From Planctomycetales bacterium 10988 (GTDB lineage: Bacteria > Planctomycetota > Planctomycetia > Pirellulales > Pb10988): a stretch of DNA of 64,000 bases. The stretch covers positions 4,740,709 through 4,804,708 of the forward strand of contig CP043547.1 of assembly GCA_009664345.1 (NCBI GenBank), in the 5' to 3' direction. The position numbers were made by a program, and so were the translations under genes. Position 1 is the first letter of the stretch. The number at the start of each line of letters is the position of its first letter. Positions 53,574-64,000 of this stretch are shown one piece after another. The notes under the pieces are model-generated. The model did no database searches and was not told the DNA's origin. It worked only from the letters and a program-made list of their open reading frames with translations.

Positions 53574-54890
53574 ATGCTTACAAGTCTCAAGGAACAACTC
53601 GAACACGTCACGTTAAGCCGCATTGTAGGTCGAATTGATCAGACCTGCGGGAACACCCTCGCGGCGATTGATCTCCCGGTGCCCTTGGGGTCACTCGTTC
53701 AGATCGATCGACCGCAGGCATCCCCGTTGAAGGCCGAGGTCATCGGTTTTCGCGATTGCTGGACGCTGCTTCTGCCGCTAGGGAGTACGGAGGGAATTCG
53801 CCGCTATCAACCGGTTTCTCTTTTGCAAAGCACACGCACCTTTCCTATTGGTGACAATCTTTTGGGAAGGATTTTGGACGGAAATGGAAAGACGCTCGAA
53901 GGGCCGCCGCTCTCGGTGATGACTTCGCGAGCAAACTTGTGCCTCAAGCCGATCGATGCCTTGACGCGTCCCCCGATTACACAACCGTTTTCTACAGGGA
54001 TTCGAGCGATCGATGGCTTTCTCACCTGTGGATATGGTCAACGCCTAGGGATTCATGCGACCGCCGGGGTGGGCAAGAGTACGTTGCTTAGCATGTTCGC
54101 TCGACACGCCGAGGTCGATGTGATCGTGGTCGCTTTGATCGGCGAACGCGGTCGTGAAGTCCGAGAGTTTCTCGATCATGCGCTTTCGACAGAGTCGAGA
54201 AAGCGAACTGTGATCGTCGTGGCAACCAGCGACGAACCGGCACCACTTCGAATCCGAGCGGTATGGGGGTCGGCCTGCGTGGCGGAACATTTCCGCAACC
54301 AAGGGAAGAAGGTACTTTGGTTGATCGATTCCATGACAAGGGTCGCCCATGCCCAACGAGAAATCGGTTTGGCCGCCGGAGAACCACCGGTGACGCGGGG
54401 CTATCCGCCTTCGGTCTTCTCGCTTTTACCCCGGATTGTCGAACGAGCTGGCACGACCGAGCGGGGAAGTATTACCGCGTTTGCCACCATTTTATTAGAA
54501 GATGAAGCTGAGGAAGCCAATGATCCTTGCGCGGAGGCATTGCACGGCCACCTTGATGGGCATATTCGTCTCACGCGAAAGTTGGCCGCCGCGGGTCACT
54601 ATCCCGCGATTGATTTGGCCCAAAGCCTTAGTCGCTTAATGCCCTCGCTGATCAACGACCAACATCGAGGTGCCGTTGACCGCTTGCGGGCTGCCTTTGC
54701 TCTTTGCAAAGAGAATGAGCTTCTGCGTAAAAGCGGGCTTCTGCGACCAGGACAAAATCCCGAATTCGATCGTGCTTGGAATGTCTGTCAGGACACCATG
54801 GCATTTTTGCGGCAGGGCGGCAACGACCCTTCTCCCGTTCACGAAACGATAGACAAGCTCGAACGCCTGGCAACAAGGCTTTCGGAGTAA
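53574..54890 (+). CDS. fliI: Flagellum-specific ATPase FliI
   Basis: 438 residues. The type III export ATPase, homologous to F1-beta. Walker A is HATAGVGKST, with ATAG where most FliI proteins have AGSG; Walker B KVLWLIDSMTRVA and the ALIGERGREVREF motif are present. The FliI signature PVTRGYPPSVFSLLPRIVERAG and the arginine-finger region are complete. Overall length and domain order are normal. It is flanked by fliH and fliJ. Confidence 0.95.
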   Translation: MLTSLKEQLEHVTLSRIVGRIDQTCGNTLAAIDLPVPLGSLVQIDRPQASPLKAEVIGFRDCWTLLLPLGSTEGIRRYQPVSLLQSTRTFPIGDNLLGRILDGNGKTLEGPPLSVMTSRANLCLKPIDALTRPPITQPFSTGIRAIDGFLTCGYGQRLGIHATAGVGKSTLLSMFARHAEVDVIVVALIGERGREVREFLDHALSTESRKRTVIVVATSDEPAPLRIRAVWGSACVAEHFRNQGKKVLWLIDSMTRVAHAQREIGLAAGEPPVTRGYPPSVFSLLPRIVERAGTTERGSITAFATILLEDEAEEANDPCAEALHGHLDGHIRLTRKLAAAGHYPAIDLAQSLSRLMPSLINDQHRGAVDRLRAAFALCKENELLRKSGLLRPGQNPEFDRAWNVCQDTMAFLRQGGNDPSPVHETIDKLERLATRLSE

Positions 54891-54939
54891 TCATTTTCCG
54901 CTCGAAGTAGGAAACTTCTCTTTTTCACGGAGGTCCGAA

Positions 54940-55395
54940 ATGGAAAACTTCAGTCAAGTCATTGCCTCGCAAAAACTCCTTTGGCAACAAGCCCAACAGG
55001 CATTGCAACAGCTTCAATTAGAAGAAGCAAAGTATCAACAACAGCGTCAGGATTTACATCAACGTCAAAAAGCACTTTTGGAAAGTCGCAAAGATTTGCT
55101 CGGCAGTTGCCAATTCGCTATCGCTGACTGGAACGATCATCATTCCTCGAATCGCTACTTTCGTGAAGAGGCTCAGTCCATCAATCATGACCTGTTGATG
55201 CTTCGGCAACGAATCTCCGAACAGGCGGCGGCAGTCTTTTCCTTGCGACAAACGTACGATTCTTTATTAACCCAGGCGAAGCGGGAGGCTTCTCTCTTGC
55301 AGCAACGGGAACAAGCGAAGCAGGATCAGGCCTTTCTTGATCAGCAACCATCACGCAGCACATCCGCTTGGTCGGGAATCTCGAAAGCGTCCTAA
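54940..55395 (+). CDS. fliJ: Flagellar protein FliJ
   Basis: 151 residues, nearly all coiled coil, lysine-, glutamine- and glutamate-rich (QQALQQLQLEEAKYQQQRQDLHQRQKALLESR). FliJ binds the FliI ring and FlhA and resembles the gamma subunit of F1. Family sequence is poorly conserved, so the call rests mainly on position directly after fliI, helical character and length near 147. GGAGG lies five bases before the ATG. Confidence 0.75.
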   Translation: MENFSQVIASQKLLWQQAQQALQQLQLEEAKYQQQRQDLHQRQKALLESRKDLLGSCQFAIADWNDHHSSNRYFREEAQSINHDLLMLRQRISEQAAAVFSLRQTYDSLLTQAKREASLLQQREQAKQDQAFLDQQPSRSTSAWSGISKAS

Positions 55396-58932: not shown

Positions 58933-60699
58933 ATGAGTAGACTTTTCTCAATACTGTGGGTTTGCACCTTCTATTATAGTTGTCTTCCGGCTACCTCGGC
59001 GATCGCCCAAGAACCCGCCGAAGGCCAGAAGTACGCGCTCTTGATCGGGGTGGATGATTATACGCATCTCAATCCGTTGAAATTCTGTGGATCGGATATG
59101 CGGGGCTTGCGGGATCAGCTGCTACGAAGTGGCTTTGCGGAAGATCATATCTATACGATGCACGATCGGGCCGAAGAAAATCGCTACCGCCCGAACACCT
59201 TTGCTTTCAAGCAGCAGCTCAAAGTCGTGCTCAGCTTGGTTGAGGCCGAAGATACCCTCTTTATTGCGTTTAGTGGGCATGGTTTGCATTTAGAGGGGAA
59301 GAGCTATCTTTGTCCACTCGATGCGAATCCGAACTATCTGGAATCGTTGATCTCCGTGGAGTCGATTTTCGAGCAATTAGCAGAGTGTCCGGCCCGTCAG
59401 AAGCTATTCTTGGTTGATGCTTGCCGCAATGAGGTGGACCCGCCGGGGCGAAGATCGGTCTCTCTTTCGCATAATTCCCGTAGTTTAACGCAATCGCTTC
59501 AGCACCCTCCCAGTGGTTTGGTGGTGCTGACGAGTTGCGATGTCGGCGAATATGCCCTCGAAGATGAAAATCTCGACCACGGGATCTTCACGCATTTTCT
59601 GATGGAAGGCTTGCAAGGGAAGGCGGATTTCAACCAAGACGGCCTGGTGAAAATCTTCGAGCTTTTTGAATTTGTGAATCAGCAGACGAAAGATTACGTC
59701 GCCCGGAATTTCACCGAAGTTCAGCGGCCCACGCTCAAGGGGGAACTGAATGGCAATTTTATCGTGGCGACTTTGGAAAAGACCTCGCCCGATCCAAGCC
59801 CGTCCAGACCCTCGAAGCCTGCCGAGATGCGGCCATCCCCTTCCTCAACCGAACGCCCGAGCATCGATCCTGCCCGCGAGACCGGGCGGAAAGAACTTGT
59901 GGAACTCGTGAACACCTTGAAACAGGTGGAAAGCTATCTCGCTCAGAACGAGATCGAGCGAGCACTCATAGTCTGTGAAAAATTCCGCTCACAAAACATC
60001 GGCGAAGTTCGCCTTCTAGGGCAAATCTCCGCGAAACTTGCGGAAGTGCAAATCCCCAACGATTATTATGCCCTGGGGCCAGATCATGCCGTGCAACTCC
60101 TGAGAGCGGTGGGAGATCGTTACTATATCCAATTTTATGACAGAAAAACTCCGCAACGAGGTTGGATTCAGCAGGCGGATTTGGACCCGAAACGCGTTGT
60201 TGCCAAGGCGATCCCGAAAAGGAGCAAGGCCCTGAACGCAACGCCTTTTGAGCTGTTGAACATTCCCAGTTTGGCGGTGATTCGTGAACCTCCCTACTCT
60301 CGAAAACCGCCACGCGAGGCCTACGAACAACGCAAGAGGGCGATGCTTGCCATTCGCGAAATCGTGCCGGTCGTCGAGAGATATCTCAAAGAAGAGAACT
60401 TTGAATACGCTCTAGGAACCATCGAAAAATTCAACGGTCAGCAGGAGGTAACGGCGAAACTTCATCTGCAAGCCACGACTCAACGCGAAGTGGAACTGAA
60501 AATCGGAACCAAGGTCGTCGCGACTCTCCGGCCAAGCCAAGAAGTCGAAATCACGAAAATCTCAGACGATTGGCTTTGGGTAGAAGCCCTCAATCCGAGC
60601 GCCGATACTGATTTCAACCGGACTTCTCAGACCTTGCAAGGCTGGGCACCGCGGAGTGAATTTTATCGGCTTCGCGTGACGACGAAGTATGCAAATTAA
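58933..60699 (+). CDS. Secreted caspase-like (peptidase C14) protein 1
   Basis: 588 residues from the ATG at 58933, chosen because it begins a signal peptide (FSILWVCTFYYSCLPATSAIA); ATGs at 58915 and earlier are less likely. The catalytic p20-like domain has IAFSGHGLHLEGKSYLCPLD with His116 and FLVDACRNEVDPPGRRS with Cys164. DFNQDGLVKIFE is a perfect EF-hand loop. The last 200 residues include SH3-like segments ending GWAPRSEF. Secretion suggests an extracellular or periplasmic role. Its paralogs follow in tandem. Confidence 0.85.
   Translation: MSRLFSILWVCTFYYSCLPATSAIAQEPAEGQKYALLIGVDDYTHLNPLKFCGSDMRGLRDQLLRSGFAEDHIYTMHDRAEENRYRPNTFAFKQQLKVVLSLVEAEDTLFIAFSGHGLHLEGKSYLCPLDANPNYLESLISVESIFEQLAECPARQKLFLVDACRNEVDPPGRRSVSLSHNSRSLTQSLQHPPSGLVVLTSCDVGEYALEDENLDHGIFTHFLMEGLQGKADFNQDGLVKIFELFEFVNQQTKDYVARNFTEVQRPTLKGELNGNFIVATLEKTSPDPSPSRPSKPAEMRPSPSSTERPSIDPARETGRKELVELVNTLKQVESYLAQNEIERALIVCEKFRSQNIGEVRLLGQISAKLAEVQIPNDYYALGPDHAVQLLRAVGDRYYIQFYDRKTPQRGWIQQADLDPKRVVAKAIPKRSKALNATPFELLNIPSLAVIREPPYSRKPPREAYEQRKRAMLAIREIVPVVERYLKEENFEYALGTIEKFNGQQEVTAKLHLQATTQREVELKIGTKVVATLRPSQEVEITKISDDWLWVEALNPSADTDFNRTSQTLQGWAPRSEFYRLRVTTKYAN
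59626..59661 (+). other. EF-hand-like calcium loop in caspase-like protein 1
   Basis: DFNQDGLVKIFE has Asp1, Asn3, Asp5, Gly6, hydrophobic residue 8 and Glu12, the canonical 12-residue EF-hand loop. Confidence 0.6.
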
Positions 60700-60886
60700 A
60701 GGGATTCGATTTCCTCAATTTAACGAAAAACTCCTACAGTTTCTGCGAGGGGATGATTATAACTAAAGATGTCATATCTCTATTCAGCGATTTATCGACC
60801 TCGGCATCTATACTTTAAACCAAAATGGGAAGTAACCCGTTCATCGTACAGAAGCTTTATTGGAACTTTACAACCTGGGGGGACCG

Positions 60887-62875
60887 GTGAAAGTTACACC
60901 ACTGCGAGCGATTGGAATTTTGAGCGTCTTTGCGGGCCTCTTGATCGGGGCTATCTCAAGCAATGCGGCGGAACGCGAAGGGCAGAAGTACGCCCTCTTG
61001 ATCGGGGTTGATGATTATACGTATCTATCGCAGCTCAATTATTGTGGTTCTGATATTCGTGGCTTGCGGGATCAGTTGCAGAAGTGTGGCTTTGCCGAAA
61101 ATCGAATCGTCACCATGCACGATCAGGCGGAAGAAAATCGCTATCGCCCCAATAAACTTGCCCTGGAGGCACAACTCAACCTCCGGCTCAAACTCTTGGA
61201 CGAAGAAGATACGCTCTTGATTGCCTTCAGCGGGCATGGCTTACATTTAGATGGGAAAAGTTATCTTTGCCCCTTGGACGCGGACCCACGGAACCCGGAT
61301 TCCTTGATCGCAGTTGATTATGCGTTTGAGCAACTTGCCGATTGCAAAGCTCATCAAAAGATTATGCTGGTCGATGCCTGCCGAAATGTGGTTGATCCGC
61401 CGGGTCGCCGTTCGGTTTCCCTTGCACATAATTCCCGTAGTCTAACGCAATCGCTTCAACATCCCCCTCGGGGTTTGGTGGTGATCACCAGTTGTGATGT
61501 CGGGGAATTTGCTTTGGAAGACGCCAGCCTCGGCCATGGCATTTTCACGCATTTCCTGATGCAAGGTCTCCGCGGCGAGGCGGATTTCAACAAAGATGGC
61601 CTCGTTAAAATCTTTGAACTTTACGAATACGTGAATGATAAGACCAAACTCTACGCGGCCAACAAATTCACCGAAGCCCAACGCCCAACCCTCAAAGGGG
61701 AATTCACCGGAAGCATGGTCGTCGCTTCCTTGGAACGAACGATTCCAGAACTCCAGCCAGAACTCCAGCCAGAACTCCAACCGCCCCCAACGCCGAGCAT
61801 GGAATCATCTTCGAGTGATGAAGAAGAGACCTTTAAACGACAAGCCTCGTTGGGACTGGCCCTCGAACGCGTTAATTCCCTTCTTACTCAACACGAAATG
61901 ATGAAAGCGATGCAGGCAGTTGCCGACTATCATCGACGCGGGGAAGGCAAAATCAGAATCCTTGGACAAACGGAATGGAAAAAGCTGGAAGTCCCTGAAA
62001 TCGAGGGGTATTTGTTCAACCATCCTGTAGAAATTGTCAATTACGGGAAGGGAGTGCTAGACATCAAACTCTATGAAAGCAAAGACTCCTCTTTCATCGT
62101 TAAGCTTTCGGAATATCGCCTCCAAGCAAAAATCGTGGCGAAGGGATTTTTAAACGGGGAGGAAGGGATCGATGAAACTCCGGCGAAGCTCATGGGTGAG
62201 CCTGAACTCTTTGTTGTTCGTAAAAAAACGAACTCTCCAGGGAGCTCGGAACAAGAGTATATCCTCAAACCGGAATACGAAACCAATGGAAAGCCCTTTG
62301 TTTCCGCCGAGGTTCCCTGGGAAAGTACTACCTCGGATGATCCTCGCCCCAAGCAACCTGCAAAGCCAGAACCTCCGGTGGTTTTTCCTTCCAATCCAGC
62401 TAAGAACCCTTACTCTATCTATGAAGAAACGGCAATCGAGGAGGAAGAGAAGTGGGAGTATTTCCCTCCAGTCCCCAGTATCATCCGAGAGACCACTGAT
62501 CCATTTAATAATGACACTAAGATCGAAGCGATGGTGAAAAAGGAGTTGACTTCTGGAAATTACGAAACAGCCTTTAACCTCGTAGAGAATTACATCAACA
62601 TCGCCCCGGTAGTCATTGTTATCACTGCTTCTTCCACCGTGAAGACAGAGCTTAAGGTTGGCAAGAAGATCATTAAAGATTTACCAGAAAGAGCTTACCT
62701 CATAATTAGCAAGTCCTCAGGGGACTGGCTCTGGGCTTCGTATTTAGACCCGGGAGTGTTTCGAAACTATGAGGGTTGGATAAAGGCTTCTGAGTTATCT
62801 GACTTTAGCGTGAGCATGCGCCCAAAGCTAGATTCTCATGAGCCCGATCGTCCCCCTAATATGTTAGGTGATTAG
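60887..62875 (+). CDS. Secreted caspase-like (peptidase C14) protein 2
   Basis: 662 residues from the GTG at 60887, which has GGGGGG four bases before it and starts a signal peptide (GILSVFAGLLIGAISSNA). The catalytic His is in AFSGHGLHLDGKSYLCPLD (His117) and Cys in LVDACRNVVDPPGRR (Cys165). DFNKDGLVKIFE repeats the EF-hand loop. A PELQ-type repeat (61745-61780) leads into a longer C-terminal region of unknown fold. About 60% identical by eye to its neighbours in the first 250 residues and different after it. Confidence 0.85.
   Translation: MKVTPLRAIGILSVFAGLLIGAISSNAAEREGQKYALLIGVDDYTYLSQLNYCGSDIRGLRDQLQKCGFAENRIVTMHDQAEENRYRPNKLALEAQLNLRLKLLDEEDTLLIAFSGHGLHLDGKSYLCPLDADPRNPDSLIAVDYAFEQLADCKAHQKIMLVDACRNVVDPPGRRSVSLAHNSRSLTQSLQHPPRGLVVITSCDVGEFALEDASLGHGIFTHFLMQGLRGEADFNKDGLVKIFELYEYVNDKTKLYAANKFTEAQRPTLKGEFTGSMVVASLERTIPELQPELQPELQPPPTPSMESSSSDEEETFKRQASLGLALERVNSLLTQHEMMKAMQAVADYHRRGEGKIRILGQTEWKKLEVPEIEGYLFNHPVEIVNYGKGVLDIKLYESKDSSFIVKLSEYRLQAKIVAKGFLNGEEGIDETPAKLMGEPELFVVRKKTNSPGSSEQEYILKPEYETNGKPFVSAEVPWESTTSDDPRPKQPAKPEPPVVFPSNPAKNPYSIYEETAIEEEEKWEYFPPVPSIIRETTDPFNNDTKIEAMVKKELTSGNYETAFNLVENYINIAPVVIVITASSTVKTELKVGKKIIKDLPERAYLIISKSSGDWLWASYLDPGVFRNYEGWIKASELSDFSVSMRPKLDSHEPDRPPNMLGD
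61583..61618 (+). other. EF-hand-like calcium loop in caspase-like protein 2
   Basis: DFNKDGLVKIFE keeps every loop ligand position of the first copy. Confidence 0.6.
61745..61780 (+). repeat. Three 12-bp tandem units encoding PELQ
   Basis: CCAGAACTCCAG occurs three times (the last with one change), encoding three PELQ units just after the caspase core. Confidence 0.8.
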
Positions 62876-62969
62876 CTCTTGGAGTAGTCTCAATAGAGAG
62901 TCAACTTGATAACAATGCCGTCTTTTTGATTACATGTCGGTTTGAAGCTTCTAGCTCCCTAAAAATCCC

Positions 62970-63004
62970 AAACTCCCTGGAAAGCCTTGTTCTAGGGAGT
63001 TTTT
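62970..63004 (+). terminator. Rho-independent terminator after caspase gene 2
   Basis: AAACTCCCT pairs with AGGGAGTTT around a 15-base loop, then continues in T residues. Confidence 0.7.
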
Positions 63005-63030
63005 GCATTGTGACAGAAATAATTTTCGTT

Positions 63031-63054
63031 TTGGCACGATATTGGATATATAAA
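63031..63054 (+). promoter_or_regulatory. Possible promoter of caspase gene 3
   Basis: TTGGCACGATATTGGA and a following TATATAAA lie 75-98 bases before the ATG. The first part recalls a sigma-54 element with GA instead of GC at -12; the second recalls a -10. Confidence 0.25.
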
Positions 63055-63128
63055 GGTGGAACGCAAAACAATCGATTCGCTCGAAGGCTGCTCACCAAAC
63101 ATTCGGGCATGAATAAAAGGGGGAAATC

Positions 63129-64000
63129 ATGAAAACTTTATCATTCTTACAGTCAGGGTGCTTGGGCCTGCTTGTCCTCTGGGGGGCTTGGACGAACACG
63201 GCTCAAGCACGTGACCCGGACCCAGAGGGTGAAAAATATGCTCTCTTGATCGGGGTCGATGATTATACCCATCTCAATCCGCTTGATTTCTGCGGGGCCG
63301 ATATCCGGGCCTTACGCGAGCAACTGCTGAATTGTGGTTTCGCCGAAAGCCGTCTTTATACAATGCACGATCAGGCGGAAGAGAATCGCTTTCGTCCTAA
63401 CACGAATGCCATTAAGCAGCAACTCGATGTGATCATGAATTTGGCGGAAGAGGAAGATACTGTCTTAATCGCCTTTGCCGGGCATGGGCTGCACATGGAT
63501 GGCAAGAGTTTTCTTTGCCCGCTCGATGCCCACCCGCGATACAAGGAATCGCTGATTTCGTTGGATTTCGTCTTCGACAAGTTGGACGAATGCAAGGCAC
63601 GCCAGAAGTTGTTCTTGGTCGATGCTTGCCGCAATGAAATCGATCCGCCGGGTCGCCGTTCGGTCTCTTTGACGAACGATGCGAATAACTTCACCGAATC
63701 GTTGCAACATCCGCCGCGAGGTTTGGTGGTGCTGACCAGTTGCGATGTTGGGGAATTCGCCATCGAAGACGCCAGCCTCGATCACGGCATCTTCACTCAC
63801 TTCTTGCTTGAAGGACTCAAAGGCGAAGCCGATTACAACCGCGATGGACTGGTCAAAATCTTCGAACTGTTCGACTTCGTGAATCAGCAAACGAAAGATT
63901 ATGTGGCGAAGAAGTTCACCGACACCCAGCGTCCGACCTTGAAAGGGGAGTTGAATGGCAACTTTGTCGTCGCGAAGTTGAACAAGAAACCAGACTTGCC
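63129..64000 (+). CDS. Secreted caspase-like (peptidase C14) protein 3, cut by the window end
   Basis: 290 codons are visible from the ATG at 63129 (GGGGG five bases upstream). A signal peptide (FLQSGCLGLLVLWGAWTNTAQA) precedes the caspase core with FAGHGLHMDGKSFLCPLD (His119) and FLVDACRNEIDPPGRR (Cys167), and the loop DYNRDGLVKIFE. The 3' end is missing, so its C-terminal domain is unknown. Confidence 0.85.
   Translation, partial: MKTLSFLQSGCLGLLVLWGAWTNTAQARDPDPEGEKYALLIGVDDYTHLNPLDFCGADIRALREQLLNCGFAESRLYTMHDQAEENRFRPNTNAIKQQLDVIMNLAEEEDTVLIAFAGHGLHMDGKSFLCPLDAHPRYKESLISLDFVFDKLDECKARQKLFLVDACRNEIDPPGRRSVSLTNDANNFTESLQHPPRGLVVLTSCDVGEFAIEDASLDHGIFTHFLLEGLKGEADYNRDGLVKIFELFDFVNQQTKDYVAKKFTDTQRPTLKGELNGNFVVAKLNKKPDL
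63831..63866 (+). other. EF-hand-like calcium loop in caspase-like protein 3
   Basis: DYNRDGLVKIFE, same ligand pattern as the two other copies. Confidence 0.6.

What the first reader, a model, noticed from the sequence alone, without database searches (positions are those of the whole stretch)
58933..64000. Three tandem secreted caspase-like proteases with different C-terminal regions
Three adjacent genes share signal peptides and an intact His-Cys C14 core but diverge after it: one ends in SH3-like segments, one has a PELQ-repeat linker and a long unknown region, the third is cut. The arrangement suggests repeated duplication with changing targeting modules. Secreted bacterial metacaspase-like proteins of this kind have few studied members.
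Basis: partly seen in the sequence, partly recalled or inferred. Interest (0 to 1): 0.68.

Follow-up and report, generated by a model that had tools for sequence, protein, structure and literature searches.

The report
Tandem exported bacterial caspase-like proteases
A planctomycete bacterium carries three neighbouring, intact genes for exported caspase-like proteases, made by gene duplication; all three have the same kind of tail, and together with a built-in calcium-binding-type loop they are a clear but not unprecedented example of a large, little-studied bacterial protease family.

Summary
Three intact genes (58933-60699, 60887-62875, 63129 to about 64481, the third complete outside the window, 450 aa) encode exported caspase-fold proteases with intact His-Cys dyads. 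AlphaFold models plus Foldseek put the first two cores closest to MALT1 paracaspase and metacaspases. The three copies do not carry different targeting modules: all end in the same SH3-like barrel; copies 1 and 2 look like core + 2 x (helical hairpin + barrel), copy 3 like core + 1 module. They form one clade; four caspase-Sel1 paralogs elsewhere in the genome form its sister. Module shuffling is real in the wider family: adjacent genes in other planctomycetes carry different tails, and a 44% identical TPR-SH3 tail sits on only 28% identical cores. The substrate-pocket aspartates are invariant (82/82), predicting cleavage after Arg/Lys, and a textbook EF-hand loop lies in the core (29 of 82 homologs by a strict motif, 0.005 expected). 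Best reading: exported, probably calcium-bound, Arg/Lys-specific envelope proteases whose helical/SH3-like tails bind partners. A new variant of a known kind; moderate interest.

The parts
58933..60699 (+). Copy 1: exported caspase-like protease, (hairpin + SH3-like) x2 tail (possible earlier start ATG 58915)
58933..59007 (+). Copy 1 signal-peptide-like N-terminus (MSRLFSILWVCTFYYSCLPATSAIA)
   Evidence: sequence; hydrophobic segment test
59023..59796 (+). Copy 1 caspase-fold core; His 59278-59280, Cys 59422-59424; S1-pocket CxxD 59086-59097 and Asp 59416-59418
59626..59661 (+). Copy 1 EF-hand-type loop DFNQDGLVKIFE between two core helices
59869..60201 (+). Copy 1 first module: helical hairpin (59869-59991) and weak SH3-like segment (about 60031-60201)
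   Evidence: (borderline)
60313..60690 (+). Copy 1 second module: helical hairpin (60313-60438) and SH3-like barrel (60454-60690, pLDDT about 90 for most of it)
60887..62875 (+). Copy 2: exported caspase-like protease, same module order as copy 1, long acidic/proline-rich linker
60980..61759 (+). Copy 2 caspase-fold core; His 61235-61237, Cys 61379-61381; EF-hand-type loop 61583-61618
61745..61780 (+). PELQPELQPELQ linker repeat of copy 2, at the end of the core
61811..62311 (+). Copy 2 first helical hairpin (61811-61936) followed by low-confidence beta-rich region
   Evidence: 30% identity to copy 1 over 274 aa of tail
62501..62824 (+). Copy 2 second helical hairpin (62501-62596) and SH3-like barrel (62609-62824, pLDDT about 90)
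62970..63002 (+). Terminator-like hairpin with T run between copy 2 and copy 3
   Evidence: RNA fold -18 kcal/mol, z -3.8
63129..64000 (+). Copy 3: exported caspase-like protease, cut by window end; complete gene is 450 aa (to about 64481) with one SH3-like domain. His 63483-63485, Cys 63627-63629, EF-hand-type loop 63831-63866

Best explanation
Three paralogous, Sec-exported cysteine proteases of the caspase fold (bacterial orthocaspase/metacaspase-like, Peptidase_C14), produced by local duplication in a planctomycete of the order that contains Lacipirellula. Shown by sequence: intact gene structure, dyad, Asp-lined S1 pocket, EF-hand-type loop in the core, shared SH3-like C-terminal module, purifying selection. 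Supported by models: caspase fold and helix-loop-helix around the EF loop (copies 1 and 2), hairpin + barrel modules. Inferred: after export the core binds calcium, which is plentiful outside the cytoplasm, through the EF-hand loop in its C-terminal (p10-like) part and becomes active or stable there; it cleaves substrates after Arg or Lys; the flexible linker and hairpin/SH3-like modules dock it to a partner or envelope component, each paralog having diverged in its tail to meet a different partner. The physiological role (envelope protein processing or quality control, rather than classical cell death) is a guess.
For: Peptidase_C14 matches; Foldseek of models to MALT1, metacaspases and caspases at E down to 6e-14, TM-score 0.76 normalised to the MALT1 caspase domain 3v4o; core pLDDT mostly above 90. 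S1 Asp residues 82/82, His 78/82, Cys 78/82 in relatives, equivalent to TbMCA2 Asp95 and Asp211, which accommodate basic residues (PMC6426788). Strict EF-hand loop in 29/82 cores against 0.005 expected after shuffling; in the copy 1 and 2 models the loop has helix - short strand - helix around it. Hydrophobic segment upstream of the core in 76/89 relatives against 11/410 control stretches. Shared SH3-like module by leave-one-out profiles, also found in exported-looking planctomycete proteins that have no caspase. Monophyly of the array and of all seven close paralogs. Low dN against saturated dS.
Against: No activity, localisation or calcium-binding data. SignalP was not available; the hydrophobic segment of copy 1 is the weakest of the own-genome copies. 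Not all homologs keep the EF loop (35 of 82 with a relaxed motif), so it cannot be essential to the whole family. The SH3-like assignment rests on models and on weak Pfam hints (SH3_2 E 0.07, SH3_6 E 0.2); no PDB sequence match is significant, and the barrel itself was not run separately in Foldseek. Copy 3 was not modelled. The first barrel of each two-module tail is uncertain.
Confidence: 0.6

Rival explanations
1. They are cell-death or fratricide effectors: exported caspase homologs that kill the cell itself or neighbours, as proposed in general for extracellular bacterial metacaspases.
For: PMC3501461 raises fratricidal or surface action for extracellular metacaspases. PADLOC lists a 'caspase' model that matches these cores at E 1e-12 to 1e-17.
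Against: The PADLOC match covers only the caspase core (positions up to about 180 of 453). No gasdermin-like or immunity-like small gene was seen next to the array (by inspection only). Old (dS near saturation), strongly constrained copies look like maintained functions rather than a fast-turning toxin-immunity cassette.
Confidence: 0.15
2. They are extracellular nutrient-scavenging or digestive proteases; the SH3-like tails bind cell-wall or polysaccharide material.
For: Export signals; bacterial SH3 domains often bind cell wall (own knowledge); family tails elsewhere include FGE-sulfatase and a DUF1080-like tail (named by eye).
Against: Caspase-fold enzymes with an Asp-lined S1 pocket are known as limited-cleavage, sequence-specific proteases (own knowledge); no peptidoglycan-binding Pfam family was matched.
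Confidence: 0.12
3. The array is a rapidly diversifying set in which the tails are swapped to give new targets.
For: Adjacent caspase genes carry different tails in L081 and L094; L066 and L140 share a 44% identical tail but 28% identical cores.
Against: In this window the tails are homologous; what differs is module number, linker and sequence divergence.
Confidence: 0.13

Closest known systems
Bacterial orthocaspases / prokaryotic metacaspases (Peptidase_C14, Pfam PF00656; surveyed in PMC3501461 and PMC6426788)
   Same: Caspase p20 core, His-Cys dyad, Asp-lined basic S1 pocket; N-terminal helix likely to be a signal peptide; TPR, Sel1 and FGE-sulfatase tails are all described.
   Different: SH3-like tails are not mentioned in the two surveys searched (0 occurrences of 'SH3'); an EF-hand loop built into the core of bacterial members was not found described there (EF-hand motifs are noted in 7 archaeal proteins).
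MALT1 paracaspase
   Same: Closest solved structure by sequence of copy 1 and by fold of copies 1 and 2; Asp two residues before the Cys (alignment).
   Different: Human, cytosolic, Ig and death domains instead of signal peptide and hairpin/SH3-like tails (own knowledge); about 20% identity.
Caspase-TPR-SH3-like proteins of Lacipirellula limnantheis (L066) and other planctomycetes (L069, L072, L140-L142)
   Same: Signal-like N-terminus, caspase core, TPR-like helices, one SH3-like domain.
   Different: One module instead of two, low-complexity tail after the barrel; no adjacent caspase gene listed in L066, L069 or L072; cores 36-44% identical to the window's (27-34% for L140 and L141).

Membership tests
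Peptidase_C14 / prokaryotic caspase homologs | Significant match to the caspase domain profile | tested here: met
   PF00656 61-71 bits against cut-off 21.4
Peptidase_C14 / prokaryotic caspase homologs | His-Cys catalytic dyad | tested here: met
   All three copies; 78 of 82 relatives at each site
Peptidase_C14 / prokaryotic caspase homologs | Caspase fold | tested here: met
   AlphaFold + Foldseek for copies 1 and 2; copy 3 core is 68-74% identical to them but was not modelled
Orthocaspase/metacaspase-type specificity | Acidic S1 pocket (TbMCA2 Asp95 and Asp211 equivalents) | tested here: met
   82/82 Asp at both sites; reference residues from PMC6426788
Orthocaspase/metacaspase-type specificity | Proteolysis after Arg/Lys | not testable with these tools
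   needs an enzyme assay
EF-hand proteins | 12-residue loop D.[DN].[DNS]G.[IVL]...E between two helices | tested here: met
   Sequence of all three copies and helix boundaries in the models of copies 1 and 2
EF-hand proteins | Calcium binding; usually paired EF-hands | tested here: inconclusive
   Only one loop per core was noticed, and Pfam EF-hand models did not match the window copies; binding not testable here
EACC1-associated caspases (NCBIfam NF047832) | Score over the curated cut-off | tested here: not met
   69-72 bits against 140
Bacterial SH3 (SH3b) domains | Significant match to an SH3 family | tested here: inconclusive
   Pfam SH3_2 E 0.07, SH3_6 E 0.2; barrel topology in models only

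The most novel reading that the evidence does not exclude
A planctomycete-centred class of export-activated caspases in which a single EF-hand inside the catalytic domain acts as an environmental calcium switch, keeping the protease off in the cytoplasm and on in the envelope, with exchangeable tails selecting targets.
Probability: 0.2. Interest if true: 0.65.

Novelty: new variant of a known kind. Interest (0 to 1): 0.4.

Why it matters
Discussion of bacterial caspase homologs has centred on cell death. These proteins suggest that a large part of the family in planctomycetes is exported, keeps a basic-specific active site, and is diversified by duplication and tail exchange. The EF-hand loop gives a simple, testable idea for how such an enzyme could be silent until it leaves the cytoplasm.

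Tried and rejected
Single-protein search of genome contigs with copy 1 found nothing; the core alignment did. Searching for the copy 1 tail alone in 197 genomes of the order gave almost no relatives, which at first suggested a genome-unique tail; the profile of the last module then matched 33 of 398 genomes of the class, with the strongest outside matches mostly in caspase genes. A link to gasdermin or EACC1 systems was considered and dropped. Synteny of the array could not be tested: the genus and family each hold only this genome. No sigma-70 promoter signal above chance. No Rfam family in the window. The idea that the long region of copy 2 is a new domain was dropped after the model and profiles.

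Full report
What is there. The window is bases 4740709-4804708 of a 6.65 Mb single-contig genome. Three same-strand ORFs lie at its end. The third runs over the edge and is a complete 450-aa gene in the genome, followed by a terminator-like hairpin, a Ser/Thr kinase-WD40 gene, ilvN and ilvC; there is no fourth caspase gene directly downstream. Each has a Sec-type N-terminus by inspection, an intact His and Cys, and a Peptidase_C14 match. No frameshift or stop breaks them. Core dN is 0.17-0.22 with near-saturated dS, so the copies are old and kept under purifying selection.

Fold and active site. AlphaFold models of copies 1 and 2 have cores with pLDDT mostly above 90. Foldseek places them on MALT1, then metacaspases and caspases; profile searches of PDB sequences agree. 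Copy 3 was not modelled, but its core is 68-74% identical to the others. The Cys-x-x-Asp motif and the Asp two residues before the catalytic Cys match the Trypanosoma brucei MCA2 residues that hold basic substrates (PMC6426788). Both Asp are present in 82 of 82 relatives, the catalytic His and Cys in 78 of 82 each. I infer cleavage after Arg or Lys, not Asp.

A calcium-type loop in the core. All three copies carry D-x-N-x-D-G-L-V-K-I-F-E. A strict EF-hand motif occurs in 29 of 82 cores, against 0.005 expected in shuffled sequence, and a relaxed one in 35, at about the same place in each core. In the models of copies 1 and 2 it sits between two helices with a short strand in the loop, as in EF-hands. 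Calcium binding itself is inferred. EF-hand motifs were reported in seven archaeal orthocaspases (PMC6426788); I found no description for bacterial members in the papers searched.

The C-terminal regions. A profile from any five of six terminal modules recovers the sixth, including those of copies 1, 2 and 3. The models show, for copies 1 and 2, helical hairpin - weak beta region - helical hairpin - confident beta barrel; the two tails align over 274 residues at 30%. Copy 3 has one such terminal domain by sequence. The fold name SH3-like rests on the models and weak Pfam hints; the barrel was not searched alone by Foldseek. The first barrel in copies 1 and 2 is uncertain.

Origin and wider setting. 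The genome has four more close paralogs: three in a tandem cluster with Sel1 repeats at 5.93 Mb and one at 1.68 Mb whose tail looks like Sel1 repeats by eye. In an 82-sequence tree all seven form one clade (100/99), the array one clade (100/98) and the Sel1 set its sister (100/99). Of 77 fetched loci, 20 hold two or more caspase ORFs, some on opposite strands or as fragments. L081 holds three adjacent genes with different tails, L094 seven. Caspase + TPR-like helices + SH3-like domain recurs in L066 (Lacipirellula limnantheis), L069, L072 and L140-L142. L066 and L140 share tails at 44% over 219 aa but cores at only 28% over 133 aa, which points to exchange between core and tail. The same SH3-like profile also hits exported-looking planctomycete proteins without a caspase.

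How it probably works. Shown: gene intactness, dyad, pocket, loop motif, shared tail, constraint. Inferred: export through Sec (a hydrophobic segment precedes the core in 76 of 89 relatives against 11 of 410 controls), calcium loading outside the cytoplasm, limited proteolysis after Arg/Lys, and docking through hairpin and SH3-like modules. The role is unknown; I favour envelope protein processing over death or defence, without direct evidence.

Novelty. Exported bacterial caspase homologs with interaction tails were surveyed in 2012 (PMC3501461). What is added here is the SH3-like tail class, the embedded EF-hand loop, and a clear case of local duplication. That is a new variant of a known kind.

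Noticed in passing
G000:C1:5930000-5936600 (L007:6206-14566, - strand): Second tandem cluster in the same genome: three exported-looking caspase proteins with 11-15 Sel1 repeats each, sister to the window's array; next to two genes whose products end in a CxxCHGxYR motif.
   Followed up: partly
L094:2249-16333: Seven adjacent caspase ORFs in a Planctomicrobium piriforme MAG, several with one or two FGE-sulfatase-like tails, others with unrelated tails (tails named by eye).
   Followed up: partly
L081:6568-11677: Three adjacent caspase genes with three different tails (DUF1080-like, Sel1-like, FGE-sulfatase-like; by eye): a real case of tail change within one array.
   Followed up: partly
G000:C1:5406929-5407435 (L015): Very long ORF (1824 aa) with a caspase-like stretch in which both catalytic residues appear replaced: likely a pseudo-caspase; two further distant long ORFs at 3.74 and 2.50 Mb.
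   Followed up: no
L143-L153: The same SH3-like module occurs in other exported-looking planctomycete proteins, with TPR-like repeats, or thioredoxin-like plus WD40-like regions (by eye).
   Followed up: partly
window 53574-55395: Flagellar export ATPase FliI-like gene and a FliJ-like gene upstream (named by eye, not searched).
   Followed up: no
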